From an uncultured bacterium (GTDB taxonomy: Bacteria; Pseudomonadota; Alphaproteobacteria; Sphingomonadales; Sphingomonadaceae), in the NCBI GenBank assembly GCA_903884945.1, contig CAISGR010000310.1, positions 1 through 64,000 on the forward strand: a DNA stretch of 64,000 nucleotides. The letters run 5' to 3'. The translations under genes were made by a program, and so were the position numbers. Of this stretch, positions 3,782-51,100 are shown in pieces (positions within the stretch are counted from its first letter, which is position 1; each line of letters begins with the position of its first letter). The notes beneath the pieces are model-generated. The model did not search any database. It worked only from the letters and a program-made list of their open reading frames with translations, and was not told the origin of the DNA.

Positions 3782-4594
3782 ATGCGGGTGATGGAAGGCG
3801 CTGTAGCCGAATTGCTGGTCGAACGGCGCGAGGACGATGTCGTCGTCCTGACGCTCAACCGGCCGCGCGCGAAGAACACCGTGTCCTTCGCCATGTGGGA
3901 GCAGTTCGGCCACGCGCTCACCGCGATCGAGAACGGCACCCCGCCGCGCGCGATCATCCTGTGCGGCGCCGAGAATCATTTCAGCAATGGCGGCGACGTG
4001 AAGACCGGTCCGGCGCGGGGCGAGGGGGCGGTCGCGCTCGCCGCGCGGCTCGAGATGGGCCAGCGCATCATCGCGCGGCTGCGCGCCCTGCCGGTGCCCA
4101 CCATCGCCGCGATCGAGGGTGGCGCGTTCGGCGTGTCGTGGAGCCTCGCCATGGCCTGCGACCTGATCTTCGCGTCCGACGCCGCCCGGTTCGGCGCGCC
4201 GTTTCTCGGCTTCGGCCTCGTGCCCGATGGCGGCGCCGCCTGGTTCCTGACGCGCATCCTCGGCCGCTACCGCGCCGCCGAGATCATCTTTTCCGGCCGC
4301 ACGCTCGATGCGGCGGAGGCAGCGTCGCTCGGGCTGGTCAGCCGGCTCGCGCCCGCGGGCGAGGTCGTCGCGGCGGCGCTCGCCTTCGCCACCAATATCG
4401 GTGAGGGCAATCGCCACGCCGTCGAACTGACCAAGCGGCTGCTGCAGATGTCCGATGACGGCGATCTCGCCACCAGCCATGCGCTTGAACTGGTCTATTG
4501 CCATACCTGCCAGGCCGGCGACGAGGTGAAGGCCGCCCGCGAGGCCTTCGTCGCCCGCGCCGCGGCCAGGGCCGCCGCCAAAGCTGCCGGCTGA
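3782..4594 (+). CDS. Enoyl-CoA hydratase/isomerase (crotonase) family protein
   Basis: VLTLNRPRAKNTVSFAMW, oxyanion-hole region FSNGGDVKTG, PTIAAIEGGAFGVSWSLAMACDLIFASDAARFGAPF. Confidence 0.88.
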   Translation: MRVMEGAVAELLVERREDDVVVLTLNRPRAKNTVSFAMWEQFGHALTAIENGTPPRAIILCGAENHFSNGGDVKTGPARGEGAVALAARLEMGQRIIARLRALPVPTIAAIEGGAFGVSWSLAMACDLIFASDAARFGAPFLGFGLVPDGGAAWFLTRILGRYRAAEIIFSGRTLDAAEAASLGLVSRLAPAGEVVAAALAFATNIGEGNRHAVELTKRLLQMSDDGDLATSHALELVYCHTCQAGDEVKAAREAFVARAAARAAAKAAG

Positions 4595-43347: not shown

Positions 43348-43813
43348 TCGCGGGACCGCGTATCGCCGTCCGATGGGCCGCGCCCGGCTGGTTCAAACCC
43401 GCAGGATCTTGGGGGCCAGTCATTCTCCAGATCCTTCCATATTGGTGGAGACTGCGCTTGACTCGGTGGATCGGCGTCCCGCACATTTTGTAACGGCGGC
43501 AGTATCTTATGCGGTACCGGCCCGTCGTGTTGGTCTGTTAACTCAAATGCACGGTATCGTGGATGTCGGGTCGCTGCTTCTGCTGCGATCAAGGGCTGTC
43601 GTCGGTTGCGGGGGATCGGAAAATGCTGGGGCGCGCACTTGCCGCGGACGGTGGTCCGATGGCCTTTCCAGCCGGCGGACTGGCCCTACTGCCGGTCGGT
43701 GAAGGGCGCCCCCTCCTGCGACACGTCCGAGACCGGTGTGGCTGCGAAGATCACAGCTTCTCCTCACGAATGGCGCGCGGACGATACCAATTCAGCTTCG
43801 GGGCAAGACCATC

Positions 43814-45994
43814 ATGAGCATCAATAGCTCCGATCGCAGACGCGGCTGGTGGGGGCGGGGCCTTTCGCTTTCGATCGCCGTCATCCTTGCAGGCGGGTTC
43901 GTGACGGCTTCGGTCGCAAATGAAACCCTGGTCTATTCCTATGACCCATTGGGCCGGCTCATATCGGTAACGATCGCGGGAGGGCCACGTAACGGGCAGC
44001 AAGTCTCGACAGGCTTCGACCCGGCCGACAATCGTACCAACTATCAGGTTGCGGGCGCACCCAGCGGCATTTTCTCGGTGGCCGACGCCAGCGTCACCGA
44101 AGGTGGAAGCGCGAGCGTCACCATAACACGATCAGGATCGGTATCGGGCGCCGCGGCAGTCAGTTATGCCACGTCGAACAACTCCGCGACGGCGCCCGCC
44201 GATTATACCGCCGCCTCGGGTACGCTCAGCTTCGCGGCTGGTGAAACCAGCAAGACGATCTCGATCGCTACGGTCGACGACACCGTCTACGAGGGGGCGG
44301 AGTCTTTCGCGGTAACCTTGTCGAGCCCCACTGCTGGCGCTGGGCTCGGCAAAGCGAACGGCATCGTCACGATCGTCGACAACGAGGCGGTGCCGGAACT
44401 GGCCATCTCGAATGCGAGCGTTACCGAGGGCGGTTCGGCGGTACTGACCGTCACCCGTTCGAGCGTCACCGGCTCGACCGTGGCGGTCAACTACGCGACG
44501 GCCAATGGCACCGCGACGGCGCCGGGCGATTTCGGCGCCGCGTCCGGTACGCTGACCTTTCTGCCGGGCGAGACCTCCAAGACCATCACCGTCGCGACCG
44601 TCGACGACGCCGTTCACGAAGCAGCCGAGTCCTTTACCGTGGGGCTTTCGGGCGCGACGGGAGGTGCGATCATCACCAAGGCCACAGGCAGGGTCTCGGT
44701 GGCGGACAATGACACGCCGCCGAGCTTTGCCATCGCGAACGCCGCCGCGACGGAGGGTGGCCCGGTAGTCATGACCGTGACCAAGACGGGCGCGACCGCG
44801 TCGGCCCTTTCCGTTACCTATCAGACGGTCAACGCCACGGCGGTGGCGCCCGGCGATTATGGTGCCCTTTCCGGCACGCTCAGCTTCCTGCCGAACGAGA
44901 CCTCCAAGACCATCACCGTCGCGACCGTCAACGACGCGATCTATGAGCCGACCGAGACGTTCTCGGTCCGCTTGTCCGGCGCCTCGGGCGGTGCGACCAT
45001 CTCCACTGCCACGGGGACCGGAACGATCAACGACAATGATCCGATGCCGGTTTTCTCGGTGTCCGGCGTGTCGGTCACTGAAGGCGGCCCGGCGACCCTG
45101 ACCATCGTGAAATCGGGTGCGACCGGCGTCAATGCGACGGTCTCCTACGCGACGGCCGATGGCACCGCGACCCAGAGCCTTTATCAGAGCGCCAGCGGAA
45201 GCCTGACATTTCTTCCGGGTGAAACTTCGAAGACAGTTCAGGTCTACACGACGCAAAATGTGTTTTTCGATGTAACAAAGACTTTCACGTTCGGGCTGTC
45301 GGCTCCGGTAGCAGCGACAATCGGCGCGTCACCAGCGATCGTCTCGATCATCAATGATGATCCGCCGCCATCTTTCTCTGTGTCAACGCCGACACCGCGG
45401 GATGAAGGGTCGGCGCTTGAATTCTATGTCAGCCTGACGATCGATCCCTATAAACTGCCCATGACGATCAATTATACGACGTCCAGCGGCACCGCAACTT
45501 CCGGTACGGATTTCACCCCAGCTTCCGGAACCCTGACGTTTAATGCTCCCGACACCGTGAAATCGGTCCTCGTTCAGACGACCCAAGATAGCGATCTCGA
45601 GCCAGACGAGACGATCATCTTCACGATTTCGTCCCCAAGTTACGGTGCGCCGATCATCACCGGGCAGGTCAGCGGCACGATCAAGAATGACGACATCCCG
45701 CCGAGTACCGGGCCGGTCGCCAACACGGATAATATGGGCACTTTTGCGAGGTGCGACTCCTTCACCGTCACGCCGTTGGCAAATGATACGGACCCCGGAG
45801 GACATTATCCGCTGACGCTCGTGTCAGTCGCGGCAGGGGCCGGCTACACGAGAACGATTTCCGGAAATACGGTTGTATTCGAGGTAACCGCCTCCGGTAC
45901 GAAAAGTGTTCAATATGTCGTGGCGAACTCCGTCGGCGGGCAGGCGACCGGCCTCATTACCTTCACCGTCCAGTCGGGGCATGTCTGCATATGA
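43814..45994 (+). CDS. Secreted multi-Calx-beta-domain protein with one N-terminal YD/RHS-like repeat and a C-terminal cadherin-like/VCBS-like domain
   Basis: Signal peptide; VYSYDPLGRLISVT; repeated VTEGGSA..TITRSG..ATAPADYTAASGTLSFAAGETSKTISIATVDDTVYEGAESFAVTLS units. Confidence 0.88.
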   Translation: MSINSSDRRRGWWGRGLSLSIAVILAGGFVTASVANETLVYSYDPLGRLISVTIAGGPRNGQQVSTGFDPADNRTNYQVAGAPSGIFSVADASVTEGGSASVTITRSGSVSGAAAVSYATSNNSATAPADYTAASGTLSFAAGETSKTISIATVDDTVYEGAESFAVTLSSPTAGAGLGKANGIVTIVDNEAVPELAISNASVTEGGSAVLTVTRSSVTGSTVAVNYATANGTATAPGDFGAASGTLTFLPGETSKTITVATVDDAVHEAAESFTVGLSGATGGAIITKATGRVSVADNDTPPSFAIANAAATEGGPVVMTVTKTGATASALSVTYQTVNATAVAPGDYGALSGTLSFLPNETSKTITVATVNDAIYEPTETFSVRLSGASGGATISTATGTGTINDNDPMPVFSVSGVSVTEGGPATLTIVKSGATGVNATVSYATADGTATQSLYQSASGSLTFLPGETSKTVQVYTTQNVFFDVTKTFTFGLSAPVAATIGASPAIVSIINDDPPPSFSVSTPTPRDEGSALEFYVSLTIDPYKLPMTINYTTSSGTATSGTDFTPASGTLTFNAPDTVKSVLVQTTQDSDLEPDETIIFTISSPSYGAPIITGQVSGTIKNDDIPPSTGPVANTDNMGTFARCDSFTVTPLANDTDPGGHYPLTLVSVAAGAGYTRTISGNTVVFEVTASGTKSVQYVVANSVGGQATGLITFTVQSGHVCI
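44570..44602 (+). repeat. 33-nt exact direct repeat (copy 1) inside Calx-beta repeats; copy 2 at 44897-44929
   Basis: gagacctccaagaccatcaccgtcgcgaccgtc in both places, 327 nt (109 codons) apart, in frame. Confidence 0.9.
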
Positions 45995-46044
45995 TGTGCG
46001 ACCTCTTCCAACGCCCGTCGGGTAAATTGCTGCGGAGCAGTTGC

Positions 46045-49000
46045 ATGTGGATCGAACAACGGGCCGCAGGCATTCTGGCAGGCGCTGGCCGAACAATTTG
46101 CCGGGCTGCCCTTGCGGGAGTCCTGATCTTGGGCCTGGCCGCAAGGTCTGCCCAGGCGCAGGATTTGCCCAAGTCGATTTCGCCGCTGCAGGTCGAGCCC
46201 GACCGCAACGGTGTCAATATCGTCACGGGCAAAATGGCTCCCGATGCACTGACGCTGTCGGTTCCCGCCGCACCGCGCCTCAAGTTCGACCGGGTGCAGA
46301 ATGCCGCGCCCTATTCGACCGGCGAGGTGTTGGGCAATTGGGATTCGGGCGACCGAAGCGCCGTTTGGACAGTCCACACCGCGGACGGAACATCGGAAGC
46401 GTTCCGCTGCTCCTGGGACATAGACGGCAAGGGATGCTCGAGCGTCACCCGTTCTGGATCGATGCTCAACTATAGCGGAACCACCTTTCGCCGTGCAGGC
46501 TCGGGCGAGGTCTATACGATCAATCTGGTCCATCTCTATCAGAATCCGGTGCCTAGCGATACCAATCAGCAGAGGAAGCGGCTGTTCTACGCTTCCCGGG
46601 TCGATTATCCCGACGGCGAAGTCATCAGCTATACCTATGGCACCGCGACGCTGCCAACCGATCCCTATAGCCGGACCTGGTATCGTCCGATCCGGATTGC
46701 GAGCAATCGCGGCTATTTCATTACCATTGCCTATCAGGGGAATGACCTGACCCAGACCGGTTGGGGCACGGCCAGCGAGGTCGCGATCTACAATGCCAAT
46801 GCGCCCTCGACCCCGCTGGCGAGGCTGACCTATTCAGGCAACGGCACTGTGACTGATCTCGCGGGACGGGTCTATCAGGGATATGATCTGGGGACGCTAA
46901 GCCTTGATATCGAAACCGCAAGCTTCTCCCGAACTTTGCCGGCCGAGACCTCCCCCGCGATAACCGTCGCCGCTGTCGCCAACCTTCCTACCGGCGCTCC
47001 CATGATAGGCTCGGTGAACGCGGACGGGGTTCAGTGGAGCTATTCCTACGCGAACCCGCAATATTATTCGGGCATTGACGGATATCTTTACAGTGGCGTG
47101 ACCGTCATTGGGCCGAACGGCTATCAGAAATCCTACCAGATCAACAGCGCGGGCACGGCTGCTACCGGCGCCCGGAACGAGATCACGCGGGTAACCGACG
47201 AAATTGGCCGGGCCACTAATTACGAATATGACGACAACGCCCGCGTCACGAAGATCACCCTGCCCGAAGGCAATACCACCTCTATCGGCTGGGACGATGC
47301 GGGGAGCATCATAACCAGGACGCTTACCGCGAAGCCGGGCTCGGGCCTCGCCAATATCGTTGAGCAGGCCTATGTCGACCTGGCCAGCTACTATACTGCC
47401 GGTGGCATCTTGGACTGCCTCAGCACGGTTCTTTGCTATCGCCCCACCTGGTATCGCGATGCGCTCGGCCGCCAGACTGACTATGCCTATAACGTTCGCG
47501 GCCAGCTCATCGAGCAGACCGAGCCAGCCGACGCCAATGGCGTCCGCCGCAAGACCTTCATTGAATACGAGTCCTACGATAGCGGGTCCGGCGTCATCTC
47601 GCGCAAGAAGACGGTCAGGATCTGTGGTGTCACCACGACCTGCGGCACCAGCGCAGAAATCAGGACCGAGTATGAATATTGGGAAAGCACCAACCTGCCG
47701 ACTGTCGAACGGCAGGTCGATACCGCGACCGGCGACGTCCGGGAGGTGCGGTACAGCTATGACAGTGCCGGCCGGCTTTTGTCGATCGACGGCCCGCGCC
47801 CCGGCTGGGACGACACTCAATATTATCGGTACGATGTCCTCGGCCGGAAGACCTGGGAGATCGGGGCGCTGGCGACCAACGGGCTCCGCATGGCGAAGCG
47901 CTTCACCTATCGCGATTCCGACGACAAGGTTACCAGCGTCGAAACCGGTACACTACCCGATGCCACCAGCACGACGCTGACGGTAATCGAGCGGACTGAC
48001 ATGACGTATGACAGCCGCCGCAATGCCATTCGGCAGGCGACATCGGCGGGTGGCGTCACGTTGCGCGTCGCCGACCAATCCTATCTCGATCGCGGACTGC
48101 TCGACTGTACGGCGACGCGGATGAACCTGACCGGCTTGCCCGCGGCGAGCAGTGCCGGCGCCTGCACCCTGGGCACCACTGGAACGCAAGGCGCGGACCG
48201 GATCACCCGGAACGTGTACGATGCCGCTGGCCAGCTCCTGCAACTGCAACAGGCTTATGGCACACCCTTCGCGCGGAACCAGGCGACCTACAGCTACACG
48301 CAGAACGGCAAGCGCCAGTTCCTTACGGATGCCAACGGCAACAAGGCGCAGTTCGTCTATGATGGTCATGACCGCCAGACCCAGTGGTATTTCCCGCACA
48401 AGACTGCCATCGGCACCGTCAGCACCAGCGACTATGAGCAATATGGCTATGATGCCGCCGGAAATCGCACATCACTGCGTCGCCGTGACGGCCGGACGCT
48501 CACTTTCGCCTATGACGGGCTAAACCGCGTAATATCGAAGGTCGTGCCGGACGGTTGCGCGCCGATCCAGGTGGGCGCTTGCGCGCCGGCTTCGGCAACG
48601 CGCGACGTATATTACACATACGACATCATGGGCCGGCAACTCACCGCGAAATTTGACGCCACGGGCGGCGCGGACGGATTGGTCAGCACCTATGACGTGT
48701 TCGGGGCCCTGCGTTCGAGTACGATCAGCATGGGAGGCTTCTCCGGGACGCTGAGCTCGGACTATGACGAGGCCGGCAACCGCACGCGGCTCACGCATCC
48801 GGACGGGCAGGCGTTTACCTATGCCTATGATGCGCTCAATCGGCTCACGGGTCTTTACGAGGGTGTGGACACTTCGGTTGCGCTTGATCAGTTCACCTAC
48901 AACCCACAGGGTCTGCTCTCCGGCCGGACCGAGGGCATGGGCAGCGGGACAGCCTATGGCTATGACGCGATCGGGCGGCTGGCCAGCCTTTCGGACAGTT

Positions 49001-50286
49001 TCGTCGGCGGCATCGGCAACGTCACCATCGGGTCGATCGCCTATAATCCCGCGTCGCAGATCGTTGGCCAGGCGCGGGACAATGATGCCTATGCGTGGCG
49101 CGACGCGCTCATGGTCAACCGGACTTATGCCGCGAACGGACTCAATCAATATACCAGCGCCGGTCCCGCCAGCTTTACATATGACGCCAACGGCAATCTG
49201 GTCTCGGACGGCACGGTCAGCTTCGCCTATGATGCCGAGAACCGGTTGATCTCCGCGTCGAACGGCACCTCGCTGACTTATGATCCGATGGGGCGGCTGT
49301 GGCAGGTGGCACAGGGCGCGGCCAGCTCCCGCTTCCTCTACGATGGCGATGCGCTGATCGCCGAATATGATGGTGGGGGAGCCATGACGGCGCGGTATGT
49401 TCACGGCAGCGATGCGAAGGCAGATGATCCGCTCGTCTGGTACGGCAACGGGGAGACGCACTGGCTTCATGCCGATCTGCAGGGTTCGATCGTCGCCGCC
49501 ACCAATGGTTCGGGTGGCGCACCGGCGATCAACACCTATGACGAATATGGTATTCCGGGCGCGGGCAATATCGGGCGGTTCCAGTACACCGGCCAGGCGT
49601 GGCTCGCCGAACTCGGGATGTACTATTACAAGGCCCGCATTTATTCGCCGACGCTGGGGCGTTTCCTGCAAACGGATCCGATCGGCTATGACGATCAGAT
49701 CAACTTATATGCCTATGTTGGTAATGATCCGGTTGACGGGCGCGATCCGAGTGGACTGGCCGGCGAATGCGACACCGGCTCAAGATTGCAGGGAGGGTCA
49801 AGAGGCAGTAAAGTCGCCGAAGGCTTCCCAATTGGAAACAATCCGAATGCGTCGAAAAAACTAGCCAGCGCCACGCCGAGCAGCAAACGCGACACCTTAA
49901 TAGCATCTGGGCAAGAGGCGGAAAGAATGGGGCCGGATCACGTTAGACGGCGACCCGCAACTGAAGCCGAAAAGGCGGCAGGTAATCAATATCTGAGAGA
50001 ATTAGGGGCGCGGATGCATGCCTGTAAATCGTATGATTGTTTTCAGCGGTCTATGAAGGCGTATTATTCTTTTAATGATACACCTCTGATGTTGGCTGTG
50101 AGGGCTGACAACGTTAAGAGGCACAATGAGGCTTTCGGATTTTTTGAGGCTGGCGTTGCATTCGTTGCAAATCTTATTTTTCCCGGAACAAAAACGGTGG
50201 TTGCTAGCTCAGGTACATTCGTGGTCAAGGTTAATGGAAAAGACCCGTTAATGGCGGATAGTCCTTATGAGCCCATCAATAAATAA
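46045..50286 (+). CDS. Sec-type secreted RHS/YD-repeat protein with RHS-associated core and variable C-terminal domain
   Basis: Hydrophobic signal region ending SAQAQDL; many YDxxGR repeats; core YYYKARIYSPTLGRFLQTDPIGYDDQINLYAYVGNDPVDGRDPSGL; ORF opens at 45991, overlapping the upstream stop (ATGA). Confidence 0.93.
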   Translation: MWIEQRAAGILAGAGRTICRAALAGVLILGLAARSAQAQDLPKSISPLQVEPDRNGVNIVTGKMAPDALTLSVPAAPRLKFDRVQNAAPYSTGEVLGNWDSGDRSAVWTVHTADGTSEAFRCSWDIDGKGCSSVTRSGSMLNYSGTTFRRAGSGEVYTINLVHLYQNPVPSDTNQQRKRLFYASRVDYPDGEVISYTYGTATLPTDPYSRTWYRPIRIASNRGYFITIAYQGNDLTQTGWGTASEVAIYNANAPSTPLARLTYSGNGTVTDLAGRVYQGYDLGTLSLDIETASFSRTLPAETSPAITVAAVANLPTGAPMIGSVNADGVQWSYSYANPQYYSGIDGYLYSGVTVIGPNGYQKSYQINSAGTAATGARNEITRVTDEIGRATNYEYDDNARVTKITLPEGNTTSIGWDDAGSIITRTLTAKPGSGLANIVEQAYVDLASYYTAGGILDCLSTVLCYRPTWYRDALGRQTDYAYNVRGQLIEQTEPADANGVRRKTFIEYESYDSGSGVISRKKTVRICGVTTTCGTSAEIRTEYEYWESTNLPTVERQVDTATGDVREVRYSYDSAGRLLSIDGPRPGWDDTQYYRYDVLGRKTWEIGALATNGLRMAKRFTYRDSDDKVTSVETGTLPDATSTTLTVIERTDMTYDSRRNAIRQATSAGGVTLRVADQSYLDRGLLDCTATRMNLTGLPAASSAGACTLGTTGTQGADRITRNVYDAAGQLLQLQQAYGTPFARNQATYSYTQNGKRQFLTDANGNKAQFVYDGHDRQTQWYFPHKTAIGTVSTSDYEQYGYDAAGNRTSLRRRDGRTLTFAYDGLNRVISKVVPDGCAPIQVGACAPASATRDVYYTYDIMGRQLTAKFDATGGADGLVSTYDVFGALRSSTISMGGFSGTLSSDYDEAGNRTRLTHPDGQAFTYAYDALNRLTGLYEGVDTSVALDQFTYNPQGLLSGRTEGMGSGTAYGYDAIGRLASLSDSFVGGIGNVTIGSIAYNPASQIVGQARDNDAYAWRDALMVNRTYAANGLNQYTSAGPASFTYDANGNLVSDGTVSFAYDAENRLISASNGTSLTYDPMGRLWQVAQGAASSRFLYDGDALIAEYDGGGAMTARYVHGSDAKADDPLVWYGNGETHWLHADLQGSIVAATNGSGGAPAINTYDEYGIPGAGNIGRFQYTGQAWLAELGMYYYKARIYSPTLGRFLQTDPIGYDDQINLYAYVGNDPVDGRDPSGLAGECDTGSRLQGGSRGSKVAEGFPIGNNPNASKKLASATPSSKRDTLIASGQEAERMGPDHVRRRPATEAEKAAGNQYLRELGARMHACKSYDCFQRSMKAYYSFNDTPLMLAVRADNVKRHNEAFGFFEAGVAFVANLIFPGTKTVVASSGTFVVKVNGKDPLMADSPYEPINK

Positions 50287-50290
50287 TTTT

Positions 50291-50440
50291 ATGAAAAATA
50301 TCGGACGAGTTATGTCCGGATTTGGAGCGGCTATGCTGTTGATTTCAGCATCATTAAATAATAAATGGATTGTTGCAGTAATTGCGTTGGTAATAATGAT
50401 TTTAGGGGTTATTCTTTATAAGAAGTTCTCGAGTTCTTAG
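50291..50440 (+). CDS. Small two-helix membrane protein (49 aa), candidate immunity/antidote for the RHS C-terminus
   Basis: atgaaaaatatcgga...agttcttag = MKNIGRVMSGFGAAMLLISASLNNKWIVAVIALVIMILGVILYKKFSSS*; starts 4 nt after the RHS stop; below the ORF-track length cutoff. Confidence 0.5.
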   Translation: MKNIGRVMSGFGAAMLLISASLNNKWIVAVIALVIMILGVILYKKFSSS

Positions 50441-50716
50441 GCGGTGGTGCTAAATATTAATTAGGATTCTTAGGTTTTTCAGTTATATCAATCGGCGGTT
50501 TGCTTAATAATCGGTCAACGCGTGCAATAAATTATTTGATAAGGCTTGCGTAGTAGCAAAATTTGCTATTTTCGGTCCGATTGGTTAAAGTATCACGATC
50601 AGGGCGTTGAGGTGATCCGTGCCAGATGCCCGATGCCTGAATTGCCCCATCGCCGGCAGGCGGACCTTCCTGCACCCGCTGCGCACGCCGGCCTGGGCTG
50701 AGCCAGATAATTGCCC

Positions 50717-51100
50717 ATGATCACCCTTGCGGGAATGTCGGGATCGCTCGCCGATCCGCCCGGTGCAACCCCGCTGGCGTCCGCGGTCCAATGGCTTCAG
50801 GCTACCCTGCTTGGCACCGCTGCCACCGCGATCGCGGTGATAGCCGTCGCTTCGCTCGGCATCATGATGCTCACCGGCCGCGTCGACATCCGCCGCGGCG
50901 TGACCGTGGTCGGAGGCTGTTTCCTGCTGTTCGGGGCCACTGGTATCGCTGCGGGCATCCGCGCGGCCGCTGAGGCCGGGTTCGGGGCTGGGATCGTGGA
51001 GCGCCCGGCTCCGGCGGCGGCGCCGCAGTTCGAAAGCCTGCCCCGTCCAGCACCTCGCGCTGGCGACGACCCTTATGCTGGCGCCTCAGTGCGACGCTAA
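50717..51100 (+). CDS. Orphan TrbC/VirB2-like pilin protein
   Basis: SAVQWLQATLLGTAATAIAVIAVASLGIMMLTGRVDIRRGVTVVGGCFLLFGATGIAAGI, a VirB2/TrbC hydrophobic pair with a GRxxxRRG loop. Confidence 0.72.
   Translation: MITLAGMSGSLADPPGATPLASAVQWLQATLLGTAATAIAVIAVASLGIMMLTGRVDIRRGVTVVGGCFLLFGATGIAAGIRAAAEAGFGAGIVERPAPAAAPQFESLPRPAPRAGDDPYAGASVRR

What the first reader, a model, noticed from the sequence alone, without database searches (positions are those of the whole stretch)
49758..50440. AT-rich polymorphic C-terminus of the RHS protein followed by an unlisted 49-aa membrane ORF: candidate toxin-immunity pair
Seen: after the RHS core (YYYKARIYSPTLGRFLQTDPIGYDDQINLYAYVGNDPVDGRDPSGL) the sequence turns visibly AT-rich from about 49.85 kb. 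It encodes a C-terminus I cannot assign to a toxin family (…RMHACKSYDCFQRSMKAYYSFNDTPLMLAVRADNVKRHNEAFGFFEAGVAFVANLIFPGTKTVVASSGTFVVKVNGKDPLMADSPYEPINK). Four nt after its stop lies MKNIGRVMSGFGAAMLLISASLNNKWIVAVIALVIMILGVILYKKFSSS*, with two hydrophobic helices and the same AT-rich composition. Established: RHS proteins often carry horizontally exchanged C-terminal toxins with an immunity gene directly downstream. Inference: the tail is a new toxin, possibly membrane-acting given its hydrophobic stretch, and the small protein is its immunity partner.
Basis: partly seen in the sequence, partly recalled or inferred. Interest (0 to 1): 0.78.

Follow-up and report, generated by a model that had tools for sequence, protein, structure and literature searches.

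The report
Orphan RHS toxin tail with immunity candidate
A sphingomonad bacterium carries a large secreted RHS "toxin-shell" protein whose tip has been swapped for a sequence found nowhere else, followed at once by a small membrane protein that probably protects the producer, and relatives of this gene cluster tightly with a type IV secretion machine that RHS toxins were not thought to use.

Summary
The RHS core ends exactly at DPSGL (window 49758). A 175-aa tail of lower GC follows, then a 49/57-aa two-helix membrane ORF. In the ortholog G046 the DNA is 74% identical up to nt 49730, and after that the tail and downstream ORF are unrelated. Among 24 tails from sphingomonad RHS loci, 23 are followed at once by an ORF, and nearly all tails differ. 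So the polymorphic toxin-immunity architecture is well supported. The tail itself has no relative in about 85,000 genomes (close-relative scan), about 1,000 relatives, plasmids, phages, Pfam, NCBIfam, PHROGs, PADLOC or PDB. Toxicity, membrane action and immunity remain inferred; the best analogue is the pore-forming Rhs toxin Tse5 with two-TM Tsi5.

A VirB2 pilin gene lies next to this RHS gene. In the genus, RHS genes cluster with a VirB type IV secretion system that has no VirD4 coupling protein nearby: 6 of 20 genomes, 0.66 expected, P about 2e-5. These RHS proteins have Sec-like signals. Sec-then-VirB export is plausible but unproven; in the window only a VirB2 without recognisable signal peptide is adjacent, the full machine is on another contig.

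The parts
43736..45994 (+). Companion Calx-beta/Big_9 protein, 752 aa, likely secreted, with a YD/RHS-like motif at its mature N-terminus
   Evidence: Pfam Calx-beta 2.8e-86, Big_9 1.9e-7; homologs directly upstream of the RHS ortholog in G046 and UBA7473
45991..49758 (+). RHS protein shell: Sec-like signal (..LAARSAQA|QDLPK), YD repeats, RHS core with DPXGX19DPXG autoprotease motif ending at DPSGL
   Evidence: PF05593 3.9e-31; TIGR03696 6e-22 over 76/76 positions; motif spacing 19 and signal-like N-termini in all six orthologs
49759..50286 (+). Polymorphic C-terminal tail, 175 aa, predicted toxin domain; hydrophobic segment about 50134-50182
   Evidence: Homology to ortholog stops at nt 49730; no homolog anywhere searched
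50267..50440 (+). Candidate immunity ORF, 57 aa (49 aa from ATG 50291), two hydrophobic helices, overlaps or abuts the RHS stop
   Evidence: same position as downstream ORFs at 22 other RHS loci
50441..50610 (+). AT-rich non-coding remainder of the exchanged block
   Evidence: GC 0.39; no ORF of note; weak resemblance of one frame to the small ORF (p 0.049) not accepted
50717..51100 (+). TrbC/VirB2 pilin gene lacking a recognisable signal peptide (in-frame TAA at 50708)
   Evidence: PF04956 4e-13; 44-65% identical to VirB2 copies next to RHS genes in G046, UBA7473 and G974

Best explanation
This is a polymorphic RHS antibacterial effector with its cognate immunity gene. Shown by sequence: a Sec-type signal, a YD-repeat shell with an intact autoprotease motif, a swapped lower-GC tail, and a two-helix membrane ORF starting at the tail's stop codon. 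Inferred: the RHS shell encloses the 175-aa tail, cuts it off at DPSG|L, and releases it into a competing cell, where it damages the envelope or membrane. The small membrane protein sits in the producer's inner membrane and neutralises it, as Tsi5 does for the pore-forming Rhs toxin Tse5. The module arrived by exchange of the 3' end of the gene.
For: Ortholog alignment ends at the DPxG boundary. All five orthologs have other tails, each followed by its own ORF; four of these tails carry peptidase-like HExxH or HELVAH motifs, and the ORFs after those four look like lipoproteins. 23 of 24 sphingomonad RHS tails have an ORF of 45 aa or more at or near the stop; median GC steps 0.61 core, 0.51 tail, 0.42 downstream. 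Homologous tails of G046 and G1008 are followed by homologous ORFs (score 65 against a best of 57 in 2000 shuffles). Autoprotease motif DPXGX19DPXG as in Tse5 (PMC10684867). Tsi5 has two predicted TM regions (PMC9637101). Several other loci pair a tail with a small multi-TM ORF, including both other RHS genes of this genome.
Against: The tail is a singleton, so no conserved residues, fold or catalytic motif can be read. The small ORF shows no codon bias or conservation. It could be a chance ORF (1.5% or less under a Markov null, criterion set after the fact). The tail could be a degenerate remnant. In a second pair of homologous tails (G398/G932) the downstream ORFs are not detectably homologous (p 0.39).
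Confidence: 0.7

Rival explanations
1. The tail is a decayed or truncated end of an RHS protein. The AT-rich block is leftover foreign DNA, and the small ORF is a chance open frame with no immunity role.
For: No homolog of either part in any collection; small ORF has flat GC by codon position; only about 30 residues follow the hydrophobic segment; the neighbouring VirB2 gene has no recognisable signal peptide, so the locus may be eroding.
Against: The frame is intact for 175 codons; its length is typical of the other 23 tails (164-323 aa); the downstream ORF sits at the usual place and has two clean hydrophobic helices, P 0.24-1.5% by chance.
Confidence: 0.18
2. The tail is an enzyme acting in the cytoplasm or periplasm rather than a membrane toxin, and the membrane ORF protects in another way, for example by blocking entry. 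(This is a sub-case of the toxin-immunity reading that differs in the target.)
For: Orthologous loci carry peptidase-like HExxH tails; Zhang et al. 2012 (PMC3482391) suggest two-TM immunity proteins may block uptake; the tail is mostly polar, with one modest hydrophobic stretch.
Against: No HExxH or other catalytic motif recognisable in this tail; no Pfam, NCBIfam or PDB match even at E 10.
Confidence: 0.3
3. The RHS protein is not an antibacterial weapon but a surface or developmental protein whose tip varies for other reasons, such as kin recognition or adhesion, together with the Calx-beta partner.
For: A secreted Calx-beta repeat protein is encoded directly upstream in three loci; Sec-like signals; no T6SS parts.
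Against: Hypervariable tails with partner ORFs, and peptidase motifs with lipoprotein-like partners, are the signature of toxin-immunity loci.
Confidence: 0.12

Closest known systems
Tse5-Tsi5 of Pseudomonas aeruginosa (Rhs pore-forming toxin; PMC9637101, PMC10684867)
   Same: RHS shell with DPXGX19DPXG autoprotease motif; C-terminal tail of similar size without a recognised enzymatic motif; immunity protein with two predicted TM regions
   Different: Tse5 is delivered by T6SS with a PAAR-like N-terminus; this protein has a Sec-like signal and no PAAR or VgrG match; no sequence similarity of the tail to any PDB chain at E 10
Sec-exported RHS/YD polymorphic toxins such as WapA (Zhang et al. 2012, PMC3482391; WapA recalled as a lead)
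   Same: Export signal, YD repeats, variable C-terminus, downstream immunity gene
   Different: Gram-negative sphingomonads with an outer membrane to cross; VirB2/T4SS genes and a Calx-beta partner linked to the RHS genes
VirB T4SS lacking a VirD4 coupling protein (Bordetella Ptl, Brucella VirB, Bartonella Trw; PMC12857230)
   Same: The linked sphingomonad cluster has VirB2,3,4,6,8,9,10,11 and no T4CP within 60 kb; candidate substrates have Sec-like signals; extra VirB2 copies as in Trw
   Different: Linked genes are RHS polymorphic toxins with immunity candidates; the 2025 T4SS review mentions neither Rhs nor sphingomonads

Membership tests
Rhs polymorphic toxin | YD/RHS repeats and RHS-associated core domain | tested here: met
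   PF05593 3.9e-31, TIGR03696 6e-22 full length
Rhs polymorphic toxin | C-terminal aspartyl autoprotease motif DPXGX18-19DPXG | tested here: met
   DPIG-X19-DPSG, same spacing in all six orthologs; cleavage itself not tested
Rhs polymorphic toxin | C-terminus exchanged between orthologs sharing the core | tested here: met
   Homology ends at nt 49730 against G046; unlike downstream modules in the other orthologs
Rhs polymorphic toxin | Cognate immunity gene directly downstream | tested here: inconclusive
   An ORF is there, in the usual place; conservation and function cannot be tested
Rhs polymorphic toxin | Tail is toxic | not testable with these tools
   Needs expression
T6SS Rhs effector (Tse5/RhsA class) | PAAR, prePAAR or VgrG delivery module at the N-terminus | tested here: not met
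   No such Pfam match; Sec-like signal instead
Tse5-type pore-forming tail | Sequence relationship to a solved Rhs tail | tested here: not met
   No PDB chain at E 10
Imm17 (two-TM immunity) | WxW and an Arg between the two helices (PMC3482391) | tested here: not met
   One W only, no WxW, no Arg in the NNK loop
SdpI/YfhL (PF13630) | Pfam gathering score | tested here: not met
   17.7 bits against a cut-off of 28.2, E 0.004
Peptidase-like toxin tails as in orthologs | HExxH zinc motif | tested here: not met
   Absent in this tail; present in G046, G1008 and UBA7473
Substrate of a VirD4-less VirB T4SS | Sec signal and genetic linkage to the VirB cluster | tested here: inconclusive
   Sec-like signal met; genus-wide linkage strong; in the window only VirB2 is adjacent, full cluster on another contig
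Substrate of a VirD4-less VirB T4SS | Secretion depends on the VirB machine | not testable with these tools
   Needs a virB deletion and secretome

The most novel reading that the evidence does not exclude
Sphingomonads export Sec-processed RHS polymorphic toxins through a VirB type IV secretion system that lacks a VirD4 coupling protein (and shows no VirB5 or VirB7 gene), using a dedicated second VirB2 pilin: a two-step T4SS route used for competition between bacteria. The window's tail plus two-TM ORF would be one cassette of this system, with a new toxin fold. In 2012 classical polymorphic toxins were reported not to use T4SS (PMC3482391).
Probability: 0.35. Interest if true: 0.85.

Novelty: new variant of a known kind. 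Interest (0 to 1): 0.58.

Why it matters
Taken alone, the pair is one more uncharacterised RHS toxin-immunity cassette with an orphan tail. The linkage raises the stakes. Sphingomonad RHS genes with Sec-like signals sit beside a coupling-protein-less VirB system far more often than chance, with an extra VirB2 pilin. If the VirB system exports them, it would add a delivery route for polymorphic toxins, widen the short list of T4SSs that take substrates from the periplasm, and answer how Sec-exported RHS proteins cross a Gram-negative outer membrane. Deleting virB4 in a laboratory sphingomonad and looking at the secreted proteins would test it directly.

Tried and rejected
Weak tail hits in the own genome and relatives (L002-L005, E 0.004-1) lie in unrelated ORFs and are noise. 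A downstream degenerate copy of the small ORF was considered (GF.G..LLISASLNN vs GFLGFSVISIGGLLNN); shuffle p 0.049 in one of three frames, not accepted. AF2 models of the tail (pLDDT 44.5) and of the G046 tail (36.7) are too poor for fold searches, so none was run. The best tail match among 24 (L067r) is only a low-complexity linker. HExxH in this tail: absent. Imm17 and SdpI for the small ORF: tested, not met. The genome contigs and viral scans with the tail gave no true relatives; both use exact 8-residue patterns, so they find close relatives only. Plasmids hold no relative of the RHS N-terminal region.

Full report
WHAT IS THERE. The RHS ORF runs 45991-50286 (1431 aa). The RHS core model matches residues 1183-1256 over its whole length and ends at the L of DPSGL, nt 49758. 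The tail is the next 175 residues. GC3 is about 0.7-0.8 through the core, 0.62 at its end, then 0.42 and 0.44. The most AT-rich stretch, about 50.0-50.6 kb, contains the second half of the tail, the small ORF and about 170 nt of non-coding DNA. The small ORF starts 4 nt after the RHS stop (49 aa), or at 50267, overlapping the RHS end (57 aa). It has two hydrophobic helices, the second very strong (mean 3.2 over 17 residues). A first-order Markov null of the same DNA gives a two-helix ORF of 49 aa or more in 0.24-1.5% of trials. The criterion was chosen after seeing the ORF, so this is only moderate evidence that it is a gene.

IS THE TAIL EXCHANGED? Yes. An ortholog in the same genus (G046, locus L008) matches the window at 74% DNA identity from 46150 to 49730 and then stops, at the DPxG boundary. 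Its tail has an HEAVH motif and is followed by a different AT-rich ORF whose in-frame extension begins with a lipoprotein-like signal (..LLVTGC). More distant orthologs (UBA7473 MAG, G974, G1008, G111) have yet other tails and other downstream ORFs. G1008, UBA7473 and G111 carry HETTH, HEAGH and HELVAH, again with lipoprotein-like ORFs behind them. G046 and G1008 tails are homologous (1e-20), and so are the ORFs behind them (alignment score 65, best of 2000 shuffles 57). So tail and ORF travel together there. A second homologous tail pair (G398/G932, 4e-12) has downstream ORFs with no detectable similarity (p 0.39).

BASE RATE. From 20 genomes plus the loci above I collected 24 distinct RHS tails. 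23 have an ORF of 45 aa or more starting between 60 nt before and 150 nt after the tail's stop, against about 19% for 49 aa or more in random DNA of the window block's composition. Chance would be higher in GC-richer DNA. Median GC falls 0.61, 0.51, 0.42 from core to tail to downstream. Seven other loci in that table pair a tail with a small ORF of two or more predicted hydrophobic segments. The source genome's other two RHS genes are also followed by small membrane ORFs. The window pair is therefore typical in architecture, unique in sequence.

IS THE TAIL KNOWN? No relative was found in 201 relatives, 401 genomes of the order, 399 of the phylum, 230 of the class (partly overlapping sets), 85,000 species contigs (exact-peptide seeds), viral contigs, plasmids or phages, nor in Pfam, NCBIfam, PHROGs, PADLOC or PDB. 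AF2 without homologs is uninformative. The small ORF is equally orphan in the libraries searched; SdpI is below its cut-off.

HOW IT PROBABLY WORKS. Shown by sequence: a signal-peptide-like N-terminus ending AQA|QDL, YD repeats, and the autoprotease motif DPXGX19DPXG, the spacing reported for Tse5 (PMC10684867). Inferred: secretion, encapsulation, self-cleavage and release of the tail. The closest functional model is Tse5, an Rhs toxin whose tail had no predicted enzymatic activity, forms membrane pores, and is neutralised by Tsi5, which has two predicted TM regions (PMC9637101). The window pair resembles it in layout, not in sequence. Lipoprotein-like immunity candidates at sister loci also point to toxins acting in the envelope.

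THE T4SS LINK. Directly downstream, 50717-51100, is a TrbC/VirB2 pilin gene (4e-13). It has no recognisable signal peptide and an in-frame stop just upstream, so it may be a remnant. VirB2 also lies just upstream of the Calx-beta/RHS genes in G046. In UBA7473 and G974 the RHS genes sit at the end of a VirB cluster, behind a VirB2 copy. Pfam confirms VirB2, 3, 4, 6, 8, 9, 10, 11 in G974. The source genome has the same cluster on contig C55, VirB11 75% identical. I fetched 20 such clusters chosen by VirB4 alone. In 6 genomes RHS genes lie within 20 kb: 18 genes against 0.67 expected, P about 2e-5 for genomes. The 20 genomes are related, so they are not fully independent. All six linked clusters carry a second VirB2 copy, against 2 of 14 unlinked ones (hand-computed Fisher p about 7e-4). 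No VirD4-type coupling protein was listed within 60 kb of the clusters, and G046, G111 and G028 have none detectable in the genome. Neighbouring genes overlap where VirB5 and VirB7 would be expected. VirB4 of this type is in 77 of 295 genus genomes but in 4 of 5 with an ortholog of this RHS. Every RHS N-terminus examined looks like a Sec signal. T4SSs without a coupling protein are few, and at least two take substrates by a two-step route (PMC12857230). Zhang et al. [quoted passage not shown] Searches of the paper library for RHS with T4SS in sphingomonads returned nothing. A Sec-plus-VirB route is therefore a testable new proposal. It is not shown, and in this window only VirB2 is adjacent.

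VERDICT. Observation confirmed. Toxin-immunity reading: likely (0.7), mechanism inferred. Membrane action: possible, not established.

Noticed in passing
window 50717-51100: VirB2/TrbC pilin gene next to the RHS-immunity pair, with no recognisable signal peptide and an in-frame TAA at 50708; orthologous RHS loci also have VirB2 adjacent.
   Followed up: yes
L035-L054, L016, L009: Sphingomonad VirB clusters (VirB2,3,4,6,8,9,10,11, no VirD4 nearby) are often flanked by RHS and Calx-beta genes on one or both sides, with a second VirB2 copy when RHS is present.
   Followed up: partly
window 43736-45994; L008, L009, L046, L047, L049: A secreted Calx-beta repeat protein beginning with a YD-like motif (VYSYDPLGRLISV) is encoded upstream of the RHS gene; homologs also lie beside T4SS clusters. 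Role unknown, perhaps adhesin or partner.
   Followed up: partly
L008 6522-7145, L017 reverse strand 3960-4520, L009 13610-14179, L018 reverse strand about 12.9-13.5 kb: RHS tails with HExxH-type motifs and lipoprotein-like downstream ORFs; Peptidase_M91 only at E 0.14. Candidate new envelope peptidase toxin family.
   Followed up: partly
G208:C1 1080582-1094202; G957:C1 2816508-2840635: Tandem arrays of RHS core fragments beside the VirB cluster, like orphan-tip storage arrays.
   Followed up: no
L060 and L078: Homologous RHS tails (4e-12) in G398 and G932, each followed by a small two-TM ORF, but the ORFs show no detectable similarity.
   Followed up: partly
G000 whole genome: Nine VirB10/TrbI matches and nine coupling-protein matches over 323 contigs, suggesting several conjugative elements.
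   Followed up: no
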